Positions 18,939-33,396 are shown, counted from the first letter of the stretch. The stretch: 64,000 bases of DNA from Prochlorococcus sp. AG-409-O23 (GCA_003215355.1 QCKL01000003.1:45744-109743); one strand, 5' to 3'. Numbers and translations: made by a program. The notes: a model not told the origin generated them from the letters alone.

Positions 18939-19586
18939 TTGGCTCTCATGCGCAATGGGCCTTCGAGATTTCTGGCCGACCGCAAGCCTTTTTTGGGAAG
19001 GTTGATTAGTAGATCAATTGGATACAGTCGTACTTCATTTGTCTCTGGGGCTAATGACTCGCAAGTTTGTGCTTTGAAGGAGGCTGGCTGTTTAAAGATT
19101 TTTCAGGAGGCTATTACTCATCAGCAGGATGAAAGGAGAAGGCCTCAATTTGAGGCTGCGCTATCAGAACTAAATAAGGGTGATGAACTTGTATTAATTA
19201 AGTTAGGTATTGCATTTAAATCTCTTAAGGAATGTATTGATTGTATTAATGCTCTCCAGAAGAAAGGTATTTATGTCAGAACATTGGATGGGTTGATTAA
19301 TACAAGATGTCTGGGCTCATTTGCAGTTCAGGTTTTTCCTCTTCTTGCTGGTTTGGCAGATTTTGAGAGGTCACTTGTTCAAGAGAGAGCATTTGAGAGT
19401 ATTCAAAGACGAAAAGAGGTTGGTGGTTCACTTGGAGGGAGGCCTAGAATTAGTTCAGAGAGGGAAGGTTTGGTCTTGCGTTTGAGGGGAGAAGGAAATT
19501 CATATAGATCGATAAGAGGTCAAACAGGGCTTGCACTCTCAACTATCCGGAGGATCATTGTTGAGAGCAAGCCTGAAATTGCATGA
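18939..19586 (+). CDS. Serine recombinase/resolvase-like protein with degenerate active site
   Basis: Resolvase fold signatures (GYSRTS, LADFERSLVQERAFESIQRRKEVGGSLGGRP, C-terminal HTH) but KLGIAFKS replaces the usual KLDRLxRS. Confidence 0.7.
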   Translation: MALMRNGPSRFLADRKPFLGRLISRSIGYSRTSFVSGANDSQVCALKEAGCLKIFQEAITHQQDERRRPQFEAALSELNKGDELVLIKLGIAFKSLKECIDCINALQKKGIYVRTLDGLINTRCLGSFAVQVFPLLAGLADFERSLVQERAFESIQRRKEVGGSLGGRPRISSEREGLVLRLRGEGNSYRSIRGQTGLALSTIRRIIVESKPEIA

Positions 19587-20536: not shown

Positions 20537-20564
20537 GGTAAGAAGGCGGCACCCAGATTCGAAC
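20537..20564. repeat. attL: GGTAAGAAGGCGGCACCCAGATTCGAAC (partial tRNA-Cys 3' end)
   Basis: Identical to 33319-33346; sequence diverges immediately afterwards. Confidence 0.9.
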
Positions 20565-20717: not shown

Positions 20718-22094
20718 TTGCCACGCAAGTTTCCTGAAATTTGGACAACGCTGAAGGTTGCGGACTATGAACGTGGGTCTTTCCCTGCCAATCTTTATCT
20801 GTTTTGGAAACCTTCTAAAAGCAAATACATTTACGCAAAATATTTACCGGAATTAGAGGAGGACATTCGCCCAAACAAGGGACGGAATAAAGACGGAAAA
20901 GGTAGGAGAGCGCCTTTTGAGGCATCTATGCAGACAATCGATACAAGAGAGGCATTGGATTGTGCAATTCAGTGGTCAAAGGGAATCAAAAGAAAAGTGC
21001 AGAGGCAAGAGGAACATTCTTTGCACCGTTATTGGGAGAGATGGTCTCTTCGTGAATTTGAGAAACCCAGAAGGAACCTTCAGTCAAAGGTCAAATTCAG
21101 GCGGGACACTCAACTGAAATGGGATGGGGAGCACTACGGGATCAAACATCAACCATGGGCGCAGAAGAGTGTGGATGAGATCAACTTTGTTGATTTTCAG
21201 GACTATTTCTTATTGCTGGAAAAGAGAGCACGAAAGAACAATGGAACGAATGGGAGTGGGATGAAGGAACAACAAAAAGCATTTATTAGAGCGTTGATGA
21301 TGGAGGCAGAAATCGATTTTCCTCATCTACAAATCCCTAGATTTCCTTCTATCTCACGCCAAACCAAACAGGTCGTACACCTCAATCAAAAGCAGTGGGA
21401 TTTGCTTTTAAGAACGATCAAAGAGCAATGTGATTTTGCAGTGAATAAGCAACTCAACTACAGGCAATACAAGGCATTGAATTGGACTTACAACAACAGA
21501 CAGAACCAACGCAATTGGGTTGATCTTTATGACGCATTGCTTTTGGAGTGGTTCTTTTTCCTTCGCGCTGAAGATATGCCTCGCCTTAAGAGTGAATGGT
21601 TCCAAGGCAACGGGGAAGGTCAATATCAATGCTTATTAGAAGAGACCAAAGGCAATAGGGATATTCATGTCACTCAGTCATTTCGACCTGATGCTGATCG
21701 ATTTATGAGAAGGATGAAATTAAGGAGACCAAAGAAGGGATATTTGATCTTTCCTGAGATCCCAAGACCTGAAGAGGGAGGTGCAGAAAACAAAGTAAGA
21801 AACCTCCTTAATCATTTGCTGAGGAAAGCAGTTGAGAAATGCCTACCTGATTTCGACTTAGGACCAAAACCTTGGACAACTATTAGACACACTGCATTTC
21901 GCTTGATGCTGGAAGATGATCCTTCGCTTTGGGTTGGGCACAAGTTGAGGGACTTTGCACGCAACGGTCACACCAGTCCAGACCAACTTCAAACCACCTA
22001 CATCACGCCTATCCAATCAGCACAAACAGCAAAAGAGACAAGAGAAAATCTTCGGTCTAAAGGTTGGAATACTGGAAGCAGGGTCAAGGTTTAA
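20718..22094 (+). CDS. Tyrosine recombinase/integrase (tycheposon type)
   Basis: Catalytic-like Arg in EWFFFLRAEDMPRL, RHTAFRLML (HxxR), GHTSPDQLQTTYI (H and Tyr); directly inside attL. Confidence 0.85.
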   Translation: MPRKFPEIWTTLKVADYERGSFPANLYLFWKPSKSKYIYAKYLPELEEDIRPNKGRNKDGKGRRAPFEASMQTIDTREALDCAIQWSKGIKRKVQRQEEHSLHRYWERWSLREFEKPRRNLQSKVKFRRDTQLKWDGEHYGIKHQPWAQKSVDEINFVDFQDYFLLLEKRARKNNGTNGSGMKEQQKAFIRALMMEAEIDFPHLQIPRFPSISRQTKQVVHLNQKQWDLLLRTIKEQCDFAVNKQLNYRQYKALNWTYNNRQNQRNWVDLYDALLLEWFFFLRAEDMPRLKSEWFQGNGEGQYQCLLEETKGNRDIHVTQSFRPDADRFMRRMKLRRPKKGYLIFPEIPRPEEGGAENKVRNLLNHLLRKAVEKCLPDFDLGPKPWTTIRHTAFRLMLEDDPSLWVGHKLRDFARNGHTSPDQLQTTYITPIQSAQTAKETRENLRSKGWNTGSRVKV

Positions 22095-22375
22095 GCAACT
22101 TCAGGACACCAACCAATCTCCAGCACTCGCTTCTTTTGCCAGTGAGGACAACGCTTGGTGAGATGCTCTCCTTGTTGAATGAGACGTTGGTGAATTGGAC
22201 AGGTCAAAAGAGTGACGCACTGCTTGGTACAGGAATAGGTGAAGTGCTCACAGGTCATGCAAACGGCACTACCTCTTGAGTGCTGTAGTTCCCCGTGCTC
22301 GAAGTAGTCCCACTCTTCGGGTTCGTCAGTGACTTTGACTGGTGCGACTGGGGTTTTACGCTTTGCCCATGCCAT
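22091..22375 (-). CDS. Small Cys-rich, probably zinc-binding protein, 94 aa
   Basis: CMTCEHF, CTKQC, LLTCPIHQRL, GEHLTKRCPHW. Confidence 0.65.
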   Translation of the reverse strand: MAWAKRKTPVAPVKVTDEPEEWDYFEHGELQHSRGSAVCMTCEHFTYSCTKQCVTLLTCPIHQRLIQQGEHLTKRCPHWQKKRVLEIGWCPEVA

Positions 22376-22795: not shown

Positions 22796-23872
22796 TTACC
22801 GAATGCAATACTTCTCATACTTTTCACTAGCACATTTTCTTATTTCATCCTTTCCTAATACTGTTGCTGACCACCAATCTTCACAGGCACCTTTCATGTC
22901 ACCGGACTCTTGCTTTAATGATGCCCTATAATTATATGCTTGTGACATATACTCATGTGCTTCTCCCAAATAACCTTCTGGAATTCCTGAAGAATACTGG
23001 TTAAGTACCTCATTAAAATCATTAATTGCGCCTTTACTATCTCCTAACTTACTTCTTTCAAATCCACGAAATAAATATTCTTTAGCGTTATCTCCAAAAT
23101 CTATTTTCATTGCTTCTGTGTAATCTTCTATCGCCCCTTCGTGATCACTTAATTGAGACTTAAAACTTGCTCGATAAAAGTAGTATTCTTTACGATTTTT
23201 TTCATCTTTCAACTTCTCCAATTCTATTGCCTTATCAAGATCTTCAATTGCTTTTTGCTGCTTCCCTGATTCCCCTCTAATTATTCCTCTACACCCATAA
23301 GCATAATAAGAAGATTCTGTATCGATATCGATTGCTTTTCCATAGTCATCTATTGCTCCATTTAAATCACTTGATATACGTTTTACATTGGCACGATCTA
23401 TGTACATCAAATAAATTTGTTCCTGAGCATATCCCTTAAGAGTTTCAGCAACTTCCTGATCTGGAATTCTATTTTCAGAAACAAGTTCTATTAATTTTGT
23501 GTAATCCTCAATAGCACCATTGAAATCATTTGCCTGCTGTCTTTTTTTAGCACGTTCCAAATATAAGTCACTTAGATGAGCAAATCTAGGACCTATATCA
23601 TCTATGCCAACAGGGTACTTTTCTATATATTCACTTAACCTATTAATATTCAAATCATCGTATGTATCTTCAGAATCATCTATTTGATTGCAATGCTCCT
23701 GTGTTAATTCATCTGCATTTAATTCGTCTTCATCCTTAAGAAGTATCAATCCCGCACCAACAACAACAGCAGTCGATCCAATAACAACTGGTTTATCCAC
23801 TTTCAGCAGAGACAAACCAGCAGCAGTGGCAGCACCAACTCCCAGGGCAATAGCAGTGCTACGAAGTTTCAT
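22796..23872 (-). CDS. TPR-repeat protein with hydrophobic N-terminal anchor, 358 aa
   Basis: Multiple TPR units (GAIDDYGKAIDID, GAIEDYTEAMKID); N-terminus MKLRSTAIALGVGAATAAGLSLLKVDKPVVIGSTAVVVGAG. Confidence 0.85.
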   Translation of the reverse strand: MKLRSTAIALGVGAATAAGLSLLKVDKPVVIGSTAVVVGAGLILLKDEDELNADELTQEHCNQIDDSEDTYDDLNINRLSEYIEKYPVGIDDIGPRFAHLSDLYLERAKKRQQANDFNGAIEDYTKLIELVSENRIPDQEVAETLKGYAQEQIYLMYIDRANVKRISSDLNGAIDDYGKAIDIDTESSYYAYGCRGIIRGESGKQQKAIEDLDKAIELEKLKDEKNRKEYYFYRASFKSQLSDHEGAIEDYTEAMKIDFGDNAKEYLFRGFERSKLGDSKGAINDFNEVLNQYSSGIPEGYLGEAHEYMSQAYNYRASLKQESGDMKGACEDWWSATVLGKDEIRKCASEKYEKYCIR

Positions 23873-23874
23873 AT

Positions 23875-24732
23875 CTAGAAGAACAACCTTCTTTGAACAG
23901 GTTTGCTCTCACCGTTTCCTCCTCCATGCACTGCCTTTGCGTATTGATCAGAATAGGCACAGTTCTTGCAACTCTCATTCGGTTCAGGGATCTGGTGTTG
24001 GTTCATCAGAGCAACCATGGCATCGACCTCTGCCTCGATCCAACCAGCATTCCAGTCATAAGGAACCAGTGATTCTTCAAACGTCATCACCTGATTGAAG
24101 TTTTCCTTGTGGCGGTCGGCATTACAGACCAGGAAGTAGGCAGTGCGATGAACATCAAATCCCATCTTTAAAAGGAGATAGGCATAGAAGTCCATTTGGG
24201 TCTTATAGGCATCGTGATAGGCATCCTCTAGATATTCATCGGGATCAACAGCACTGTTCTTTGCCTGGGATTTGTAGTCCACCACTATCAATTTCTTGGT
24301 GATCGTGTCTTGCCAGATGTCGTCCACACCTCCAGTCAGGATGATGGGCGTGTCCTTATGTCGCACCATTAATCCGTGATGCAGTGAGTTCCTCCAGTTG
24401 TCCATTTCTGGATGATCAAAAGGAACGACATGACTCAACCCATTGGGAGCAAATAAGCGATGGGGGATCTGATGTTCTCGGCAGTGATCAAACTCTTTCT
24501 TGAGTAAGAGGTCAGTGGTTTCATTGAGCGTCCAACCGGGAGTACCTGGGGGATCAAGACCCATCACCCGATCTAGATAGAAGCACCTTTTGCAGGTCAG
24601 GAAGTTGGAGAAGCGACCCCGACTGATCTTGAAGTCATACGTTTGATTGGGTTTATAAGACGACGTTTCCCTTACGCGAAGACCAGTTGCCTTGACGGGT
24701 TCTTTCTTACTGTTTCGTTTGAGATCGATCAT
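23875..24732 (-). CDS. PD-(D/E)XK nuclease superfamily protein (RecB/Cas4-like)
   Basis: GGVDDIW ... LIVVDYKSQ core; Cys pairs CKRC and CKNC. Confidence 0.8.
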   Translation of the reverse strand: MIDLKRNSKKEPVKATGLRVRETSSYKPNQTYDFKISRGRFSNFLTCKRCFYLDRVMGLDPPGTPGWTLNETTDLLLKKEFDHCREHQIPHRLFAPNGLSHVVPFDHPEMDNWRNSLHHGLMVRHKDTPIILTGGVDDIWQDTITKKLIVVDYKSQAKNSAVDPDEYLEDAYHDAYKTQMDFYAYLLLKMGFDVHRTAYFLVCNADRHKENFNQVMTFEESLVPYDWNAGWIEAEVDAMVALMNQHQIPEPNESCKNCAYSDQYAKAVHGGGNGESKPVQRRLFF

Positions 24733-24743
24733 TTATCTATTCA

Positions 24744-25541
24744 TCAATCATAAATTTGGCAGTCAACAACATCTTCGTCTTTAAAACCGTGGTATCTAGC
24801 GCTTTGTTCAGACGTAAACAAGTTTCGATCTTCAAGGTCTGAGGGATTAACTATCTCGTAAAAAGTTAAAGGTGTCCAAAACATTGGTTCAGTAAATACT
24901 GAATCTTCTTCATCAAATTCCTCAAGGAGAGTATTTTTATAAAATTCTGGATCTGCTTCAACAAGTCTCTTCGGAACGTAAACACTACCTTCTAAGTCTC
25001 GATATTCTTGAATCAGAAAACCTTCCCATATTTTGTAGGGAGGGTCATTTGGTTCACAATCGACCAAGTTATCTACCCAACGATCTCCTTCGTCATCAAC
25101 AAACTGTTCTTCAAGTAGGTCGATCAGTGGAACTTTCTTGCCTTGTTCATCTGTGTAGTAATAGTTCAGTGCTATCGCAATATCCTCCAAAGATTCATTT
25201 TGGAGATCAATCATTACGGTCTCTAGATTGTTGCAGAGAGCATCTGGATTATCAGGTTTGCGAGTGGATTGACTTGCATTGATTGCTTTTCCCTCTATCT
25301 CTTTAATCCACTCCCCTGCCTCTTCATCACCTAAATCTGCTGCCTTTTGCCAATCAGCAATAGCACCTTCTTTATCATCTAACTCTTCCTTGGCACATCC
25401 ACGATTTGCATATGCCTCTGCATAATTAGGATCTAGTTCAATTGCCTTGGTGTAATCCTCTATTGCTCCTTTAGAGTCCCTTTTATCGTCCTTATCGCAT
25501 CCACGATCAAGATATTCAGAAGCAGTTTTAGGTTCAGACAT
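24744..25541 (-). CDS. TPR protein with uncharacterised acidic C-terminal domain, ~265 aa
   Basis: N-terminal TPRs (GAIEDYTKAIELDPNYAEAYANRG); ATG at 25541 overlaps upstream stop (TAATG), so the ORF-track TTG start at 25550 is less likely. Confidence 0.8.
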   Translation of the reverse strand: MSEPKTASEYLDRGCDKDDKRDSKGAIEDYTKAIELDPNYAEAYANRGCAKEELDDKEGAIADWQKAADLGDEEAGEWIKEIEGKAINASQSTRKPDNPDALCNNLETVMIDLQNESLEDIAIALNYYYTDEQGKKVPLIDLLEEQFVDDEGDRWVDNLVDCEPNDPPYKIWEGFLIQEYRDLEGSVYVPKRLVEADPEFYKNTLLEEFDEEDSVFTEPMFWTPLTFYEIVNPSDLEDRNLFTSEQSARYHGFKDEDVVDCQIYD

Positions 25542-28500
25542 TATTGGCAATGCTCCTTCAATAATTCAGCAGCATCTTCATCTCCTAATTCTGCTGCTTT
25601 CTTCCAATCTTCACAGGCACCTTTGAGGTCTCCAATTGCTTTCCTGCAATTTGCTCGTAGAGAATAGATATATCTTTTTTCTGGACTTACTTCTATAACT
25701 AGAGTGTAATCATCAATTGCACCTTGAATATCATCAATCAAGCGCTTTACTTCAGCACGTCCAATTATTGCACTCTCCTCAAATTCCTTTGATTCTTCTA
25801 TTTTATTATTAAACATTTCAAAGACAATCTGAAAATCAGAACTTGCACCTTCTGGATCTCCCAATGCTTTTTTATAACTCGCTCGCTGCAAATAAAGACC
25901 TGAATCATGATAAAAATCCTCTTCTTCTAGTATCGTATTGATTGAATCAATCGCTTCTTGATACTTTCCTAGTTGATAATAATCCGAGGCAATATCTAAA
26001 ATAATCGGTGGATCTATATAATCAGGATCAATCTCATATGCTTTAAGTGCATCAGATAGAGAACCTACGTAATCCTTTGCTTCTCTTCTTACTTGTGCAC
26101 GAGCGTGATATGTAGAAACTATTGTTTGATCTAACTCTATTGCCTTATTCAAGTATGGAAGAGATTCTGCATACTTCTCTTCTTTTATTTCTTTTTCACG
26201 AGTGCGATATGAATACCCCATTGTTTGATCTAACTCTTTATTCTTCTCTTCTTCTGCAGCGAGTATATCTTCTATATATTCTTCATTGACGAGAATCTCT
26301 CCTATACAACCATATGCCCTAGCATAATCATTATCAATTTCAATGACTTTCTTAAGATCTAAAAGTGCATTATCATAATCATAATAATTCATCTCTGCTA
26401 TACCTCTATTAAAGTAAGCGTCTGGATTGTCAGGATTTAATTCTAAGAATTTTGTACAACTAGAAATTGATTTTTCATGGTCTCCTACATCATTATATAA
26501 TTCTCCTAGATAAAAATGAACTTTCTCATTATTAGGACTAATTTCTAATACTTTCTCGAAATCTTTAATTGCGTTCCAACGGTCTTTTATTAGATCATAG
26601 ACAGCAGCGCGATTGAAATAAGCAAGATTAGATTTTGGGTCAAGTTCTATTGCCTTAGTGAGATCTAGAATCGCACTCTGATGATCTTCCAGATCACTCT
26701 TGGCACTCCCACGTAGGATGTAGGCATTGACATCATTTGGATCAAGTTCTATTGCTTTGCTGGAGTCAATAATTACTCCTTGATAATCTTCTAAGTTATT
26801 TTTATCGCAAGCACGATTGTAATAGAGCATTGCTGCTTTTTCTTCTGCTACAGATTCAATTGCCCTGGTCCAGTCGGCAATTGCTCCTTCATAATCTCCT
26901 GATTTACCCTTATCCTTTGCACTCAAGAAGTAAGTAACGTCAGGATACATTTCATCTTCAGTACCCCATAACAATTCAGTAGCACCTTGATCTCCTAACT
27001 TCGATGCCTTTTTGAAATCTTCTCTGGCACCTTTTAGGTCTGACAATCGACCTTTCAACAGACCTCTATTTCGATATGCTAAAGCGTATTCTGGATTTAA
27101 ATTGATTGCTCTAGTGAAATCATTTATTGCACCTATCTTGTCACCTGAATCTCTCAAAGTAACCCCACGGTTATAGAAAATATCTGGATCGTTTGGGTCG
27201 ATTTCTATTGCTTTATTATAATCCTCAATCGCTGATTTTGGATCTCCAAGTAAGTCCTTACAGGAGGCACGATTGAGGTATGATGTGGCGTTATAAGGAT
27301 CAAGTTCTATTGCCTTATTGTAATTCAATATTGCTTCTTTATATTCACCTTGATCCTGCTTTTGGTTCGCTGATATTATTGCTTCATTAAGTTGTTGATC
27401 ATATTTTTCACCCCAATCACGAACGGTTTTTTGTGCTTCATTCAATTCCTGACTGTTTTCATTTTGTAGAAATTCTGAATGACGCCTAATTATTTCTTCT
27501 TTTGTTAATCCTGATTCTTTGGCATCTATGTATTTACCTAAATCCCTGCACCAGGAACCAGCAGCATTCAACCAACTTGCTGTTCCCTCTGCTCCAAGTG
27601 ATGCTGCCATTTTAAAGTCATTACAGGCATCTATACAATTATCTAATGATTGCTTAGAACGTCCACGTTCATTGTATGCTTGGTGGTAATTCGGATCAAT
27701 TTCTATCGCCTTTGTATAATCATTGATTGCAGCATAGTGATCTCCTAGTTTATCCTTAACATACCCACGATTATAAAAAGCAAAAGCAAATTTTGGGTCA
27801 AGTTCTATTGCTTTAGTGTAATCATCTATTGCACTTTTGAAATCATTTTTTCTACTTTTGGCAAGTCCACGGTTGAAATAAGCACTTACAAAAGTTGGAT
27901 CAATGGTTATTACTTTGCTGTAATCAGATATTTCACCATCAATTTCATTTGCTTTCCCTTTGGCGACCCCACGTTTGAAATATAAATCAGGATTGTTTGG
28001 GTTTTCCTGAATATCCTTAGTCAAAAGGTGAATGCTATATTCACCCTCAATTTCTTCCTCTTTGTAATCAGAGTATGCTTGCAAATTAGCAGTTTCAAAT
28101 TCAATACCTAACTCTGCTGCTTTCTTCCAATCTTCATAGGCACCTTTTTTATCACCTGCTTTGATCTTTGAAAGACCTCTCTGTAAATAACTAAGATTTA
28201 AATATGGTGTATCGTAATCCGTCTCATTTAAATCCATTTCTATTGCACTAGAGCAATCATTGATTGCTCCGAAATAATCCTTTAATCGATGTTTAGTCAT
28301 TCCACGTTCAAGATATAAAGTTGAATCGTCTGAAGTTATTACTATCTCCCTAGTAAAATCTTCTACTGCTCCATTTAAATCTCCTACAAATATCTTTGCA
28401 TGTGCTCTCCACTTATTAACAAAATTATTCTCCTCGGGATCTAATTCTGAACACTTATTCAAATCAGAGATTGCACCAGAGTAATCACCTAAAGTATGTT

Positions 28501-29101
28501 TGTGTCCTGCACGGTTAAAATATGCATCCAGATCATTTGGATTGATTTGAAGTTCCTTGTCTAATTCTTTTAATCTTTCTTCAGATGAAACCAATGCCAA
28601 AGCACTTTCTTTCTTTTCTGTAAATATCTCACGAACTGAAGGGGGCAATTCCTCTGCTGCCTTTATCCAATCCTCATAAGCACCTTTTGTATCATCTTTT
28701 CTACTCTTTGAAAGTCCACGAGTTAAATAAAGAGAAAAGTCATTTGAGTCAATTTCAATTGATTTTGAATAATCATCAATTGCTCCTGAATAATCTTTCA
28801 AATTATTTTTGGCAAGTCCCCGATTGAAATATGCTTTTGGATCATTTGGATTTACTACTAGTGCTTTAGTGCAAACTCTGATTATTTCCGCATAATCATT
28901 TTCATTTATCTGCGTCATCTCATCAGATTGATTTAGTGATTCTTTCGTTTCCTCTTCTTTCCTTCCAGCAACCAACAACCCTGCACCAAAAACAACAGCA
29001 GTCGATCCAATAACAACTGGTTTATCGACCTTCAGCAGAGATAAACCTGCAGCAGTGGCAGCGCCAACTCCTAGGGCAATAGCAGTGCTACGGAGTTTCA
29101 T
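25541..29101 (-). CDS. Giant TPR-repeat protein with hydrophobic N-terminal anchor, 1186 aa
   Basis: Many TPR units (AYFNRGLAKSRKNDFKSAIDDYTKAIELDP etc.); N-terminus nearly identical to the 358-aa protein. Confidence 0.9.
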   Translation of the reverse strand: MKLRSTAIALGVGAATAAGLSLLKVDKPVVIGSTAVVFGAGLLVAGRKEEETKESLNQSDEMTQINENDYAEIIRVCTKALVVNPNDPKAYFNRGLAKNNLKDYSGAIDDYSKSIEIDSNDFSLYLTRGLSKSRKDDTKGAYEDWIKAAEELPPSVREIFTEKKESALALVSSEERLKELDKELQINPNDLDAYFNRAGHKHTLGDYSGAISDLNKCSELDPEENNFVNKWRAHAKIFVGDLNGAVEDFTREIVITSDDSTLYLERGMTKHRLKDYFGAINDCSSAIEMDLNETDYDTPYLNLSYLQRGLSKIKAGDKKGAYEDWKKAAELGIEFETANLQAYSDYKEEEIEGEYSIHLLTKDIQENPNNPDLYFKRGVAKGKANEIDGEISDYSKVITIDPTFVSAYFNRGLAKSRKNDFKSAIDDYTKAIELDPKFAFAFYNRGYVKDKLGDHYAAINDYTKAIEIDPNYHQAYNERGRSKQSLDNCIDACNDFKMAASLGAEGTASWLNAAGSWCRDLGKYIDAKESGLTKEEIIRRHSEFLQNENSQELNEAQKTVRDWGEKYDQQLNEAIISANQKQDQGEYKEAILNYNKAIELDPYNATSYLNRASCKDLLGDPKSAIEDYNKAIEIDPNDPDIFYNRGVTLRDSGDKIGAINDFTRAINLNPEYALAYRNRGLLKGRLSDLKGAREDFKKASKLGDQGATELLWGTEDEMYPDVTYFLSAKDKGKSGDYEGAIADWTRAIESVAEEKAAMLYYNRACDKNNLEDYQGVIIDSSKAIELDPNDVNAYILRGSAKSDLEDHQSAILDLTKAIELDPKSNLAYFNRAAVYDLIKDRWNAIKDFEKVLEISPNNEKVHFYLGELYNDVGDHEKSISSCTKFLELNPDNPDAYFNRGIAEMNYYDYDNALLDLKKVIEIDNDYARAYGCIGEILVNEEYIEDILAAEEEKNKELDQTMGYSYRTREKEIKEEKYAESLPYLNKAIELDQTIVSTYHARAQVRREAKDYVGSLSDALKAYEIDPDYIDPPIILDIASDYYQLGKYQEAIDSINTILEEEDFYHDSGLYLQRASYKKALGDPEGASSDFQIVFEMFNNKIEESKEFEESAIIGRAEVKRLIDDIQGAIDDYTLVIEVSPEKRYIYSLRANCRKAIGDLKGACEDWKKAAELGDEDAAELLKEHCQ

Positions 29102-29218
29102 TCAGAGCGTCGGACTACCTAGACACTCTAGTTAGGACAGTCGATCTCATCAGAAAGCAGTGGTGAACTGGCATGAAAAAGGACACCCTCATCGAGCAGT
29201 GCCCATACCGACAAACTT

Positions 29219-29229
29219 GTGTGAGGAGT
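29219..29229 (+). promoter_or_regulatory. GTGTGAGGAGT: perfect complement of the Yfr1 sRNA core motif
   Basis: Reverse complement ACTCCTCACAC equals the conserved Yfr1 motif as I recall it. Confidence 0.2.
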
Positions 29230-29344
29230 GTCGTCTTTGGGTATACCTATAAATCGGATAGGAATACGACAGTTTTGTGTCGTTTTTAAGTCGGTTTTTA
29301 TTTTTACGACGAGTATTGGTTAGACTCTAGAAGTAAAAACGACA
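29229..29344. promoter_or_regulatory. Cluster of ACGACA/TGTCGT-type repeats between divergent transcripts
   Basis: TGTCGT 29229, ACGACA 29266, TGTCGT 29278, ACGACG 29306, ACGACA 29339; copies two and three form an inverted repeat with 6-nt spacer. Confidence 0.5.
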
Positions 29345-29352
29345 CTAGGAGG

Positions 29353-29901
29353 ATGAAAGTTTCATACATTCGTGTTTCTTCTTCTAGTCAGTCACTAGAA
29401 GTTCAATTAGATGCGGTCAAAAAGTTTGGAGTAGATAAGGTCTTCCAAGAGAAGGTTTCAGGGACATCGACTCAAGGCAGACAGAAGTTGAGAGAGTGTC
29501 TTGATTTCGTGCGTGAAGGCGATGAATTAGTCATTACCCGTATTGACCGACTTGCCCGTTCAGTCCTTGACCTTCAACTAATCGTCAAAGAACTCACCGA
29601 CAAGGGAGTGACCCTCACAGCAACTGAACAACCCATATCCACAAAGGATGCAACCTCAAAATGCTTCCTGGATATGTTGGGGGTCTTCGCAGAACTGGAG
29701 ACGAACCTTCGTAAAGAGCGTCAGACAGAAGGGATTGCCCGTGCAAAGGAGAAGGGCGTTTACAAGGGCAGGAGATCAAAAATTGATGTTGACCAAATCA
29801 AGGCACTGAAGAGTGAGGGTTTAGGTGCAACGGCAATAGCAAAGCAACTGAATATTCATAGAGACAGCGTTTATCGTTTACTTAAGGAGGCATCAGCATG
29901 A
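29353..29901 (+). CDS. Serine recombinase / resolvase-invertase
   Basis: YIRVSSSSQS, RIDRLARSVLDL, GVFAELETNLRKERQTEGIARAKEKGVYKGR, C-terminal HTH. Confidence 0.93.
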   Translation: MKVSYIRVSSSSQSLEVQLDAVKKFGVDKVFQEKVSGTSTQGRQKLRECLDFVREGDELVITRIDRLARSVLDLQLIVKELTDKGVTLTATEQPISTKDATSKCFLDMLGVFAELETNLRKERQTEGIARAKEKGVYKGRRSKIDVDQIKALKSEGLGATAIAKQLNIHRDSVYRLLKEASA

Positions 29902-30095
29902 CTAAAAAAGATATAGGGGGACTATCTGATTACATTGTTCTGAAGGAAAAGAAAGAAGTTATTTTTTATCTGCATAATCCCTATCCAGATTGCTTGGAAA
30001 TTCCAGCAATCATGAAGCAGCGTTTCCCGGAGGACTACCAGAGCATCGTCATAAGTGATTTAGACGAGTTCAAGAAATATCGAGGGCAGGTCTGA
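29898..30095 (+). CDS. Hypothetical small protein, 65 aa
   Basis: ATGA overlap with serine recombinase stop. Confidence 0.55.
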   Translation: MTKKDIGGLSDYIVLKEKKEVIFYLHNPYPDCLEIPAIMKQRFPEDYQSIVISDLDEFKKYRGQV

Positions 30096-30235
30096 TGAAA
30101 GTTGAAGTCACCCTCTATCAAGGCGGTCAAACTTTTAAGGAGGTTGTAGTGGTCTCTAAATTTGAGGATGCCAAGAAGACTGCTCTTGCTCGAAACCCAA
30201 CGGCAAAAGTGATCGCACAAAATCCGGTGTTTTGA
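30095..30235 (+). CDS. Microprotein MKVEVTLYQGGQTFKEVVVVSKFEDAKKTALARNPTAKVIAQNPVF
   Basis: Manual translation; TGATG overlap with upstream stop; 46 aa, below the ORF-track threshold. Confidence 0.55.
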   Translation: MKVEVTLYQGGQTFKEVVVVSKFEDAKKTALARNPTAKVIAQNPVF

Positions 30236-30237
30236 CT

Positions 30238-30330
30238 ATGGGATTCTTCGAGTGGCATCTAGTAGTTGATGCAGTTCTAGTTACTGGGATTGTGGGATTC
30301 CTTGTCTACAAGAGCAGAAGTAAGAAGTAA
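30238..30330 (+). CDS. Single-TM microprotein MGFFEWHLVVDAVLVTGIVGFLVYKSRSKK
   Basis: Manual translation; one TM with basic tail; 2-nt gap upstream and TAATG overlap downstream. Confidence 0.5.
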   Translation: MGFFEWHLVVDAVLVTGIVGFLVYKSRSKK

Positions 30331-30662
30331 TGCCAGTTTTGATAATTGGTTGGAGCGTGTACGACAAACTCCCAGAGGAAGATCAAAAGGAGTTTGCATT
30401 AGTAGAGCGGTATAGGACTGATTATTTCTATGAGTGTTATGAGTATGAGAATGCAAAGGGGAATAAAAATTATGAGTGGAGTGATCGATGCTTTAACAGT
30501 CAGGAAGAGTTATTGGAATTCTTCGGTTATGAAATGATCGAAGACTTAAATGCAGATGCCGTGTATGCAAGAAGGGTAGAGACCTTTACTGATGAGGATA
30601 AAAAGAGATGGATGAAACTAAGTGATGCTGGAAATCAAATCAAAGTAATGGGAGCAAATTAA
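30330..30662 (+). CDS. Hypothetical protein, 110 aa
   Basis: Open frame, start overlaps upstream stop. Confidence 0.55.
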   Translation: MPVLIIGWSVYDKLPEEDQKEFALVERYRTDYFYECYEYENAKGNKNYEWSDRCFNSQEELLEFFGYEMIEDLNADAVYARRVETFTDEDKKRWMKLSDAGNQIKVMGAN

Positions 30663-33318: not shown

Positions 33319-33346
33319 GGTAAGAAGGCGGCACCCAGATTCGAAC
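33319..33346. repeat. attR: 28-bp direct repeat overlapping tRNA-Cys 3' end
   Basis: Identical to 20537-20564. Confidence 0.9.
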
Positions 33347-33396
33347 TGGGGATAAAGGATTTGCAATCCTCTGCCTTACCACTTGGCCATGCCGCC
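33326..33396 (-). tRNA. tRNA-Cys(GCA)
   Basis: Reverse complement GGCGGCATGGCCAAGTGGTAAGGCAGAGGATTGCAAATCCTCTATCCCCAGTTCGAATCTGGGTGCCGCCT folds as cloverleaf, anticodon GCA. Confidence 0.95.

What the first reader, a model, noticed from the sequence alone, without database searches (positions are those of the whole stretch)
22796..29101. Four-gene TPR / TPR-X / PD-(D/E)XK nuclease / TPR operon: candidate undescribed system
Seen: four minus-strand genes packed with a 1-nt stop/start overlap (TAATG at 25541), an ~11-nt gap and a 2-nt gap. They encode a 1186-aa TPR protein, a TPR protein with unknown C-terminus, a RecB/Cas4-like nuclease, and a 358-aa TPR protein. Knowledge: repeat scaffold plus nuclease combinations on mobile elements are often anti-phage systems, and tycheposons carry such cargo. 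Inference: a membrane-associated TPR sensor/scaffold controlling a nuclease. The nuclease family may be widespread alone; the novelty claim is the combination.
Basis: partly seen in the sequence, partly recalled or inferred. Interest (0 to 1): 0.85.

Follow-up and report, generated by a model that had tools for sequence, protein, structure and literature searches.

The report
Mobile nuclease with swappable repeat proteins
A small mobile DNA element in a Prochlorococcus genome carries a DNA-cutting enzyme in one operon with repeat-rich partner proteins; the enzyme barely changes between related genomes while most of each partner is swapped out, which suggests, but does not prove, a variable recognition system that steers a nuclease, possibly against viruses.

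Summary
In detail: four tightly packed minus-strand genes encode a 1186-aa TPR protein, a 265-aa TPR protein with a unique C-terminus (TPR-X), a 285-aa RecB/Cas4-type nuclease (NUC) and a 358-aa TPR protein. They lie inside a 12.8-kb element at tRNA-Cys, bounded by a 28-nt direct repeat. The combination recurs: about 16 Prochlorococcus loci carry NUC beside TPR genes, on elements at tRNA-Cys, -Pro, -Thr and probably -Ser, and in 12 of them a TPR gene abuts or overlaps the NUC start. Three further genomes fuse NUC, a trypsin-like protease and TPRs in one protein. The TPR genes are hypervariable cassettes. Between two elements with 97-98% identical NUC, TPR-X and flanks, the large TPR protein keeps its first 42 and last 31 residues but only 35% identity between them. 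Two things weaken the claim of a fixed four-gene system. NUC is found without TPRs in most genomes, including next to SRAP/HMCES in one clade, and across other marine phyla; and neither gene order nor partner is fixed. Nearly all cyanobacterial stand-alone NUCs end in QxxLF, a partial match to sliding-clamp-binding motifs. Defence is plausible but undemonstrated; a fork-associated repair nuclease is the main rival.

The parts
20537..20564 (.). left attachment repeat (28 nt, identical to 33319-33346)
   Evidence: the repeat finder D7
33319..33346 (.). right attachment repeat, inside the 3' end of tRNA-Cys
33326..33396 (-). tRNA-Cys (GCA), integration site
   Evidence: ARAGORN; Rfam
20718..22094 (+). 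458-aa putative tyrosine recombinase next to the left repeat (C-terminus TIRHTAFR...GHTSPDQLQTTY); no profile hit
   Evidence: sequence; no Pfam/PHROG hit; remnant of a 62% relative at the tRNA-Cys site of L037
22796..23872 (-). TPR358: leader-bearing TPR protein, last gene of the operon
23875..24732 (-). NUC: RecB/Cas4/EXO5-type PD-(D/E)XK nuclease with four invariant Cys and C-terminal QRRLF
24744..25541 (-). TPR-X: two to three TPRs plus a rare acidic C-terminal domain found almost only near NUC
25541..29101 (-). TPR1186: membrane-leader TPR array; hypervariable middle, conserved ends
28976..29101 (-). conserved 5' leader cassette end (repeated at 23747-23872, 92% identical)
23747..23872 (-). 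second copy of the leader, start of TPR358
25541..25633 (-). conserved 3' cassette end of TPR1186 (GDLKGACEDWKKAAELGDEDAAELLKEHC), about 85-96% DNA identity in many other TPR genes
29353..29901 (+). serine recombinase (Pin-type), divergent from the operon; 100% identical in G019

Best explanation
The operon is cargo of a tRNA-Cys-integrated, tycheposon-like element. It pairs one conserved catalytic protein with interchangeable recognition proteins. Shown by sequence: NUC is a RecB/Cas4/EXO5-type nuclease with an intact active-site motif set and four invariant cysteines, and it ends in QxxLF. The TPR genes beside it are swapped wholesale between otherwise near-identical elements, at conserved 5' and 3' ends. 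The association recurs and includes fusions with a trypsin-like protease. Inferred: the cysteines hold a 4Fe-4S cluster; QxxLF docks NUC on the DNA sliding clamp, at replication forks; the leader-bearing TPR proteins sit at the membrane; TPR-X and the large TPR arrays bind variable targets (most likely phage proteins or altered replisome parts) and recruit or license NUC, which then degrades invading or replicating phage DNA. Conserved gene ends would let homologous recombination exchange the recognition part and keep the docking parts.
For: Recurrence and coupling. Fusions NUC-trypsin-TPR at L104, L110 and L271. TPR swap: window vs L031, NUC 98%, TPR-X 99.6%, serine recombinase 100%, but TPR middle 331/939 identical against leader 39/42 and tail 29/31; no DNA relative of the middle above 74% in 149 genomes. 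NUC tree: TPR linkage needs at least 8 changes on well-supported branches, so it was gained or lost repeatedly. X domain found in 5 of 149 genomes, four of those in NUC loci. Element mobility: att repeats at tRNA-Cys, -Pro, -Thr and probably -Ser. QxxLF in 58 cyanobacterial NUCs and in none of the non-cyanobacterial ones. NUC also sits beside HsdM, GmrSD/DUF262 and ResIII genes in other bacteria.
Against: Most NUC genes have no TPR neighbour, so the nuclease does not need one everywhere. In one clade NUC is followed by SRAP, a DNA-lesion protein. No known defence profile matches and no defence gene was recognised in the element. QxxLF lacks the aliphatic second residue of the revised clamp consensus (PMC13254535). 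Upstream partners include non-TPR genes. No expression, binding or phage data exist. Neighbourhood counts are inflated by shared ancestry.
Confidence: 0.4

Rival explanations
1. NUC is a replication- or repair-associated nuclease of marine bacteria (clamp-tethered, acting on stalled or damaged forks). The element merely carries it as host-benefit cargo, and the TPR genes are unrelated variable cargo in the same hot spot.
For: Wide taxonomic spread as a single gene. Conserved NUC-SRAP pair, one starred clade of 13 sampled loci. C-terminal QxxLF. Structural neighbours are AdnAB, EXO5, MGME1 and Cas4. YqaJ or OGG-like genes beside some non-cyanobacterial copies.
Against: Translationally coupled TPR genes at 12 loci against a 1.3% background. 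Three direct fusions to protease-TPR. TPR-X domain almost confined to NUC loci.
Confidence: 0.35
2. The operon serves the element itself: the nuclease processes element DNA or attacks competing elements and phages, and TPR proteins act as element-specific adaptors.
For: NUC lies beside integrases in L040 and L043. It sits in elements with different tRNA sites. Degraded NUC copies litter islands.
Against: The NUC-SRAP locus recurs with the same neighbours in one clade and looks like a stable chromosomal site. Many NUC copies lie outside any recognised att-bounded element.
Confidence: 0.13
3. NUC is a promiscuous tail gene that spreads on its own and is co-transcribed from whatever operon it lands behind; TPR genes are just frequent landing sites.
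For: Very different coupled upstream genes (TPR, 54-aa, 62-aa, 69-aa, 285-aa, 1091-aa BRCT-DUF6891-TPR). Two intact copies in G003 and G230. Neighbouring GIY-YIG-like or NUMOD3 genes in a few alphaproteobacterial loci.
Against: Preference for TPR neighbours is far above background, and a TPR-leader gene also follows NUC directly in several loci.
Confidence: 0.1

Closest known systems
Cas4 / RecB-AddB / EXO5 nuclease superfamily (PF12705, PF01930)
   Same: PD-(D/E)XK fold, active-site motifs and four cysteines in N- and C-terminal positions; Foldseek neighbours AdnAB, Cas4, MGME1, EXO5
   Different: Below Cas4 curated cut-offs, no cas1/cas2 seen, extra N-terminal 30 residues and C-terminal QxxLF; PDB sequence profile search finds no match
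Tycheposons of Prochlorococcus
   Same: tRNA-bounded, integrase-carrying cargo element of 12.8 kb in Prochlorococcus
   Different: Integrase not assigned by profile here; cargo is a nuclease-TPR operon rather than nutrient genes
Nuclease-protease pairs and canu loci in antiviral immunity (PMC12799240)
   Same: Nuclease combined with trypsin-like or caspase protease and TPRs; the three fused NUC relatives share this logic
   Different: Nuclease there is metallo-beta-lactamase type; the window operon has no protease; no activity shown
EndoMS/NucS and E. coli RecB clamp-binding nucleases (PMC8228993, PMC13254535)
   Same: Nuclease with a clamp-binding peptide
   Different: Motif here is only a partial consensus match, and NUC is a different nuclease family with TPR partners

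Membership tests
Tycheposon | Bounded by tRNA-derived direct repeats | tested here: met
   28-nt repeat, one copy in tRNA-Cys; similar repeats of 49 nt (tRNA-Pro, L038) and 19 nt (tRNA-Thr, L062) around relatives
Tycheposon | Carries a tyrosine recombinase of the tycheposon group | tested here: inconclusive
   ORF 20718-22094 has an RxxHT...GH...Y-like C-terminus but no Pfam or PHROG hit; relatives L031 and L040 carry Phage_integrase
Tycheposon | Length 4-200 kb with cargo (PMC10872708) | tested here: met
   12.8 kb
Cas4 | Score above curated Cas4 models | tested here: not met
   TIGR00372 22.0 vs 65; PF01930 19.1 vs 22.7
Cas4 | Linked to cas1/cas2 or a CRISPR array | tested here: not met
   no cas1/cas2 profile hit in the neighbouring proteins tested and no array-like repeat family in 18-36 kb
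RecB/Cas4/EXO5-type PD-(D/E)XK nuclease | Catalytic D...D-x-K...Q-Y motifs | tested here: met
   D137, D152, K154, Q179, Y183 invariant in 19 sequences
RecB/Cas4/EXO5-type PD-(D/E)XK nuclease | 4Fe-4S cysteines | tested here: met
   C47, C50, C255, C258 invariant; the cluster itself is not testable here
Clamp-binding protein | Consensus Q-aliphatic-x-[LM]-[FL] or QL[SD]LF | tested here: inconclusive
   Q, L and F anchors present, second residue G or R
Known anti-phage defence system | Matches PADLOC system models | tested here: not met
   only weak Cas4 and TPR hits
Known anti-phage defence system | Protects against phage | not testable with these tools
   needs experiment
Nuclease-protease pair (Tuck et al.) | MBL-type nuclease with partner protease | tested here: not met
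   no protease in the window operon and a different nuclease fold

The most novel reading that the evidence does not exclude
A nuclease immune system whose recognition subunits are TPR arrays diversified by cassette exchange: conserved gene ends serve as recombination handles, so one clamp-tethered Cas4-like effector is re-targeted by swapping whole TPR arrays carried on tRNA-hopping elements.
Probability: 0.25. Interest if true: 0.85.

Novelty: new variant of a known kind. Interest (0 to 1): 0.6.

Why it matters
How Prochlorococcus islands diversify under phage pressure is an open question, and few recognised defence systems are known there (own knowledge). A conserved nuclease with hypervariable, recombinationally exchanged TPR partners gives a concrete, testable candidate for a diversifying recognition system. 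It also shows a widespread, little-studied marine nuclease family with a possible replisome-docking tail, linked in different lineages to SRAP, to protease-TPR fusions and to TPR operons.

Tried and rejected
PADLOC, PHROGs and NCBIfam gave no named system. PDB sequence profile search found nothing; fold search gave the RecB/Cas4/EXO5 class. The TPR-X structure was too weak (pLDDT 69, pTM 0.37) and matched only TPR folds. NUC is absent from the annotated phage collection; only four IMG/VR contigs carry relatives. Rfam found only the tRNA. The promoter and terminator scan was at chance. The Cys-rich 94-aa neighbour (22091-22375) looked NUC-linked but proved a multi-copy family in 76 of 149 genomes, so it was dropped. 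Relatives of the integrase were not found in viral contigs. A phage origin of TPR1186 is unsupported (three weak unannotated hits).

Full report
Observation. Pfam gives TPR for three and PD-(D/E)XK for the fourth. The window belongs to a fragmented genome of about 1.38 Mb, 69% complete; the closest named relatives are Prochlorococcus single-cell genomes.

The element. A 28-nt direct repeat at 20537-20564 and 33319-33346 bounds a 12.8-kb stretch. The right copy is the 3' end of tRNA-Cys. A 458-aa ORF beside the left copy ends in a tyrosine-recombinase-like motif but has no profile hit. This fits a tycheposon-like element; the integrase assignment rests on sequence reading.

The nuclease. NUC aligns with 18 relatives over its nuclease domain. 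D137, D152, K154, Q179 and Y183, and Cys 47, 50, 255 and 258, are invariant down to 32% identity. The AlphaFold model (pLDDT 78) is closest to AdnAB, MGME1, Cas4 and EXO5. It falls below Cas4 cut-offs and has no CRISPR context, so it is Cas4-like, not Cas4. The C-terminus varies except for QxxLF: 58 NUCs carry it, and the cyanobacterial exceptions are the protease-TPR fusions, L103, L097 and the borderline L048 (QQLGF; L090 is the same gene); none of the non-cyanobacterial relatives has it. Sliding-clamp motifs are QL[SD]LF or Q-aliphatic-x-[LM]-[FL] (PMC13254535); the second residue here is G or R, so the match is partial.

Distribution. A relative with E at most 1e-3 is present in 25 of 149 relatives. 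In 400 genomes of the family 128 match at 1e-10, but many of those are a separate core paralogue at about 34% identity. A collection scan reaches SAR116, OM43, SAR11, SAR202 and other marine lineages. NUC is therefore not defined by TPR partners. In one starred clade it is followed 56-57 nt later by an SRAP (HMCES/YedK-type) protein.

Recurrence of the TPR link. Distinct loci with TPR genes beside NUC are the window, L031, L032, L034, L038, L039, L040, L041, L042, L043, L048, L056, L061, L062, L067 and L070; in L040 and L042 the immediate upstream gene is not a TPR protein. In twelve the upstream TPR ORF ends between 12 nt before and 10 nt past the NUC start. TPR ORFs are 1.3% of ORFs more than 6 kb away in the same loci (6 of 470). 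By my count, about 10 of 24 strong leader copies lie near a NUC gene or fragment, where a few percent would be expected by position alone; this is an estimate. Three genomes (L104, L110, L271) encode NUC, Trypsin_2 and TPRs as one protein. On the NUC tree the TPR label needs at least 8 changes on well-supported branches, so the link was made or lost repeatedly.

Hypervariable TPR genes. G019 carries nearly the same unit next to tRNA-Thr rather than tRNA-Cys, with a different integrase. NUC is 98%, TPR-X 99.6% and the serine recombinase 100% identical. The large TPR protein is 39/42 identical in the leader and 29/31 in the tail, but 331/939 in between. DNA homology at 97-98% stops at about 28980 and about 25633. 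TPR358 is replaced after codon 8 by two other TPR genes. Point mutation cannot give this pattern; replacement by recombination can. The same DNA-conserved ends occur on TPR genes elsewhere, with and without NUC, and the leader is a 92% repeat within the window. The TPR1186 middle has no DNA relative above 74% identity in 149 genomes. The C-terminal domain of TPR-X is found in 5 of 149 genomes, four of which carry it in a NUC locus, plus L062 and weakly L041.

Mechanism. Best supported is a conserved effector (NUC) with exchangeable recognition partners. Clamp docking, membrane anchoring and phage targeting are inferred. The fused protease-TPR relatives resemble the logic of nuclease-protease immunity (PMC12799240), but there the nuclease is of the metallo-beta-lactamase type and the window has no protease. 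A fork-repair nuclease on a mobile element is almost as likely, given the SRAP pairing and the many stand-alone copies.

Verdict. Real, recurrent and unusual, but not a fixed four-gene system. Defence is a hypothesis at about 40%. Novelty: a new variant combining known parts. No paper found here describes it, but the library is partial and few searches were made.

Noticed in passing
L104:9002-11890 (+), L110:9998-12586 (+), L271:7702-10428 (+): Single proteins of 862-962 aa joining NUC, a trypsin-like protease and TPRs; L104 and L110 form the first branch inside the cyanobacterial NUC clade.
   Followed up: partly
L046, L047, L079, L081-L086, L088, L096, L117, L140: NUC followed 56-57 nt later by a 212-aa SRAP (HMCES/YedK) protein whose C-terminus ends QLSFL in the copies read; conserved clade.
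   Followed up: partly
window 29353-29901 and 18939-19586: Two serine recombinases: one inside the element, divergent from the TPR operon; one just outside its left repeat. Role in TPR swapping not tested.
   Followed up: no
window 29102-29234 and 29898-30523: Stretches, largely non-coding, conserved at about 92-98% in several NUC loci (L031, L032, L033), including the start of a 110-aa ORF of unknown family that also recurs near NUC in L272.
   Followed up: no
L048:8821-12096 (-): 1091-aa BRCT-DUF6891-TPR protein directly upstream of NUC; a trigger-factor N-terminal-like 130-aa ORF lies in the same locus.
   Followed up: no
L052, L053, L054, L055, L057, L058: Degraded NUC fragments with stop codons in islands of other genomes, indicating frequent loss.
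   Followed up: partly
window 22091-22375 (-): Cys-rich 94-aa protein, a multi-copy family across picocyanobacteria, not NUC-specific.
   Followed up: yes
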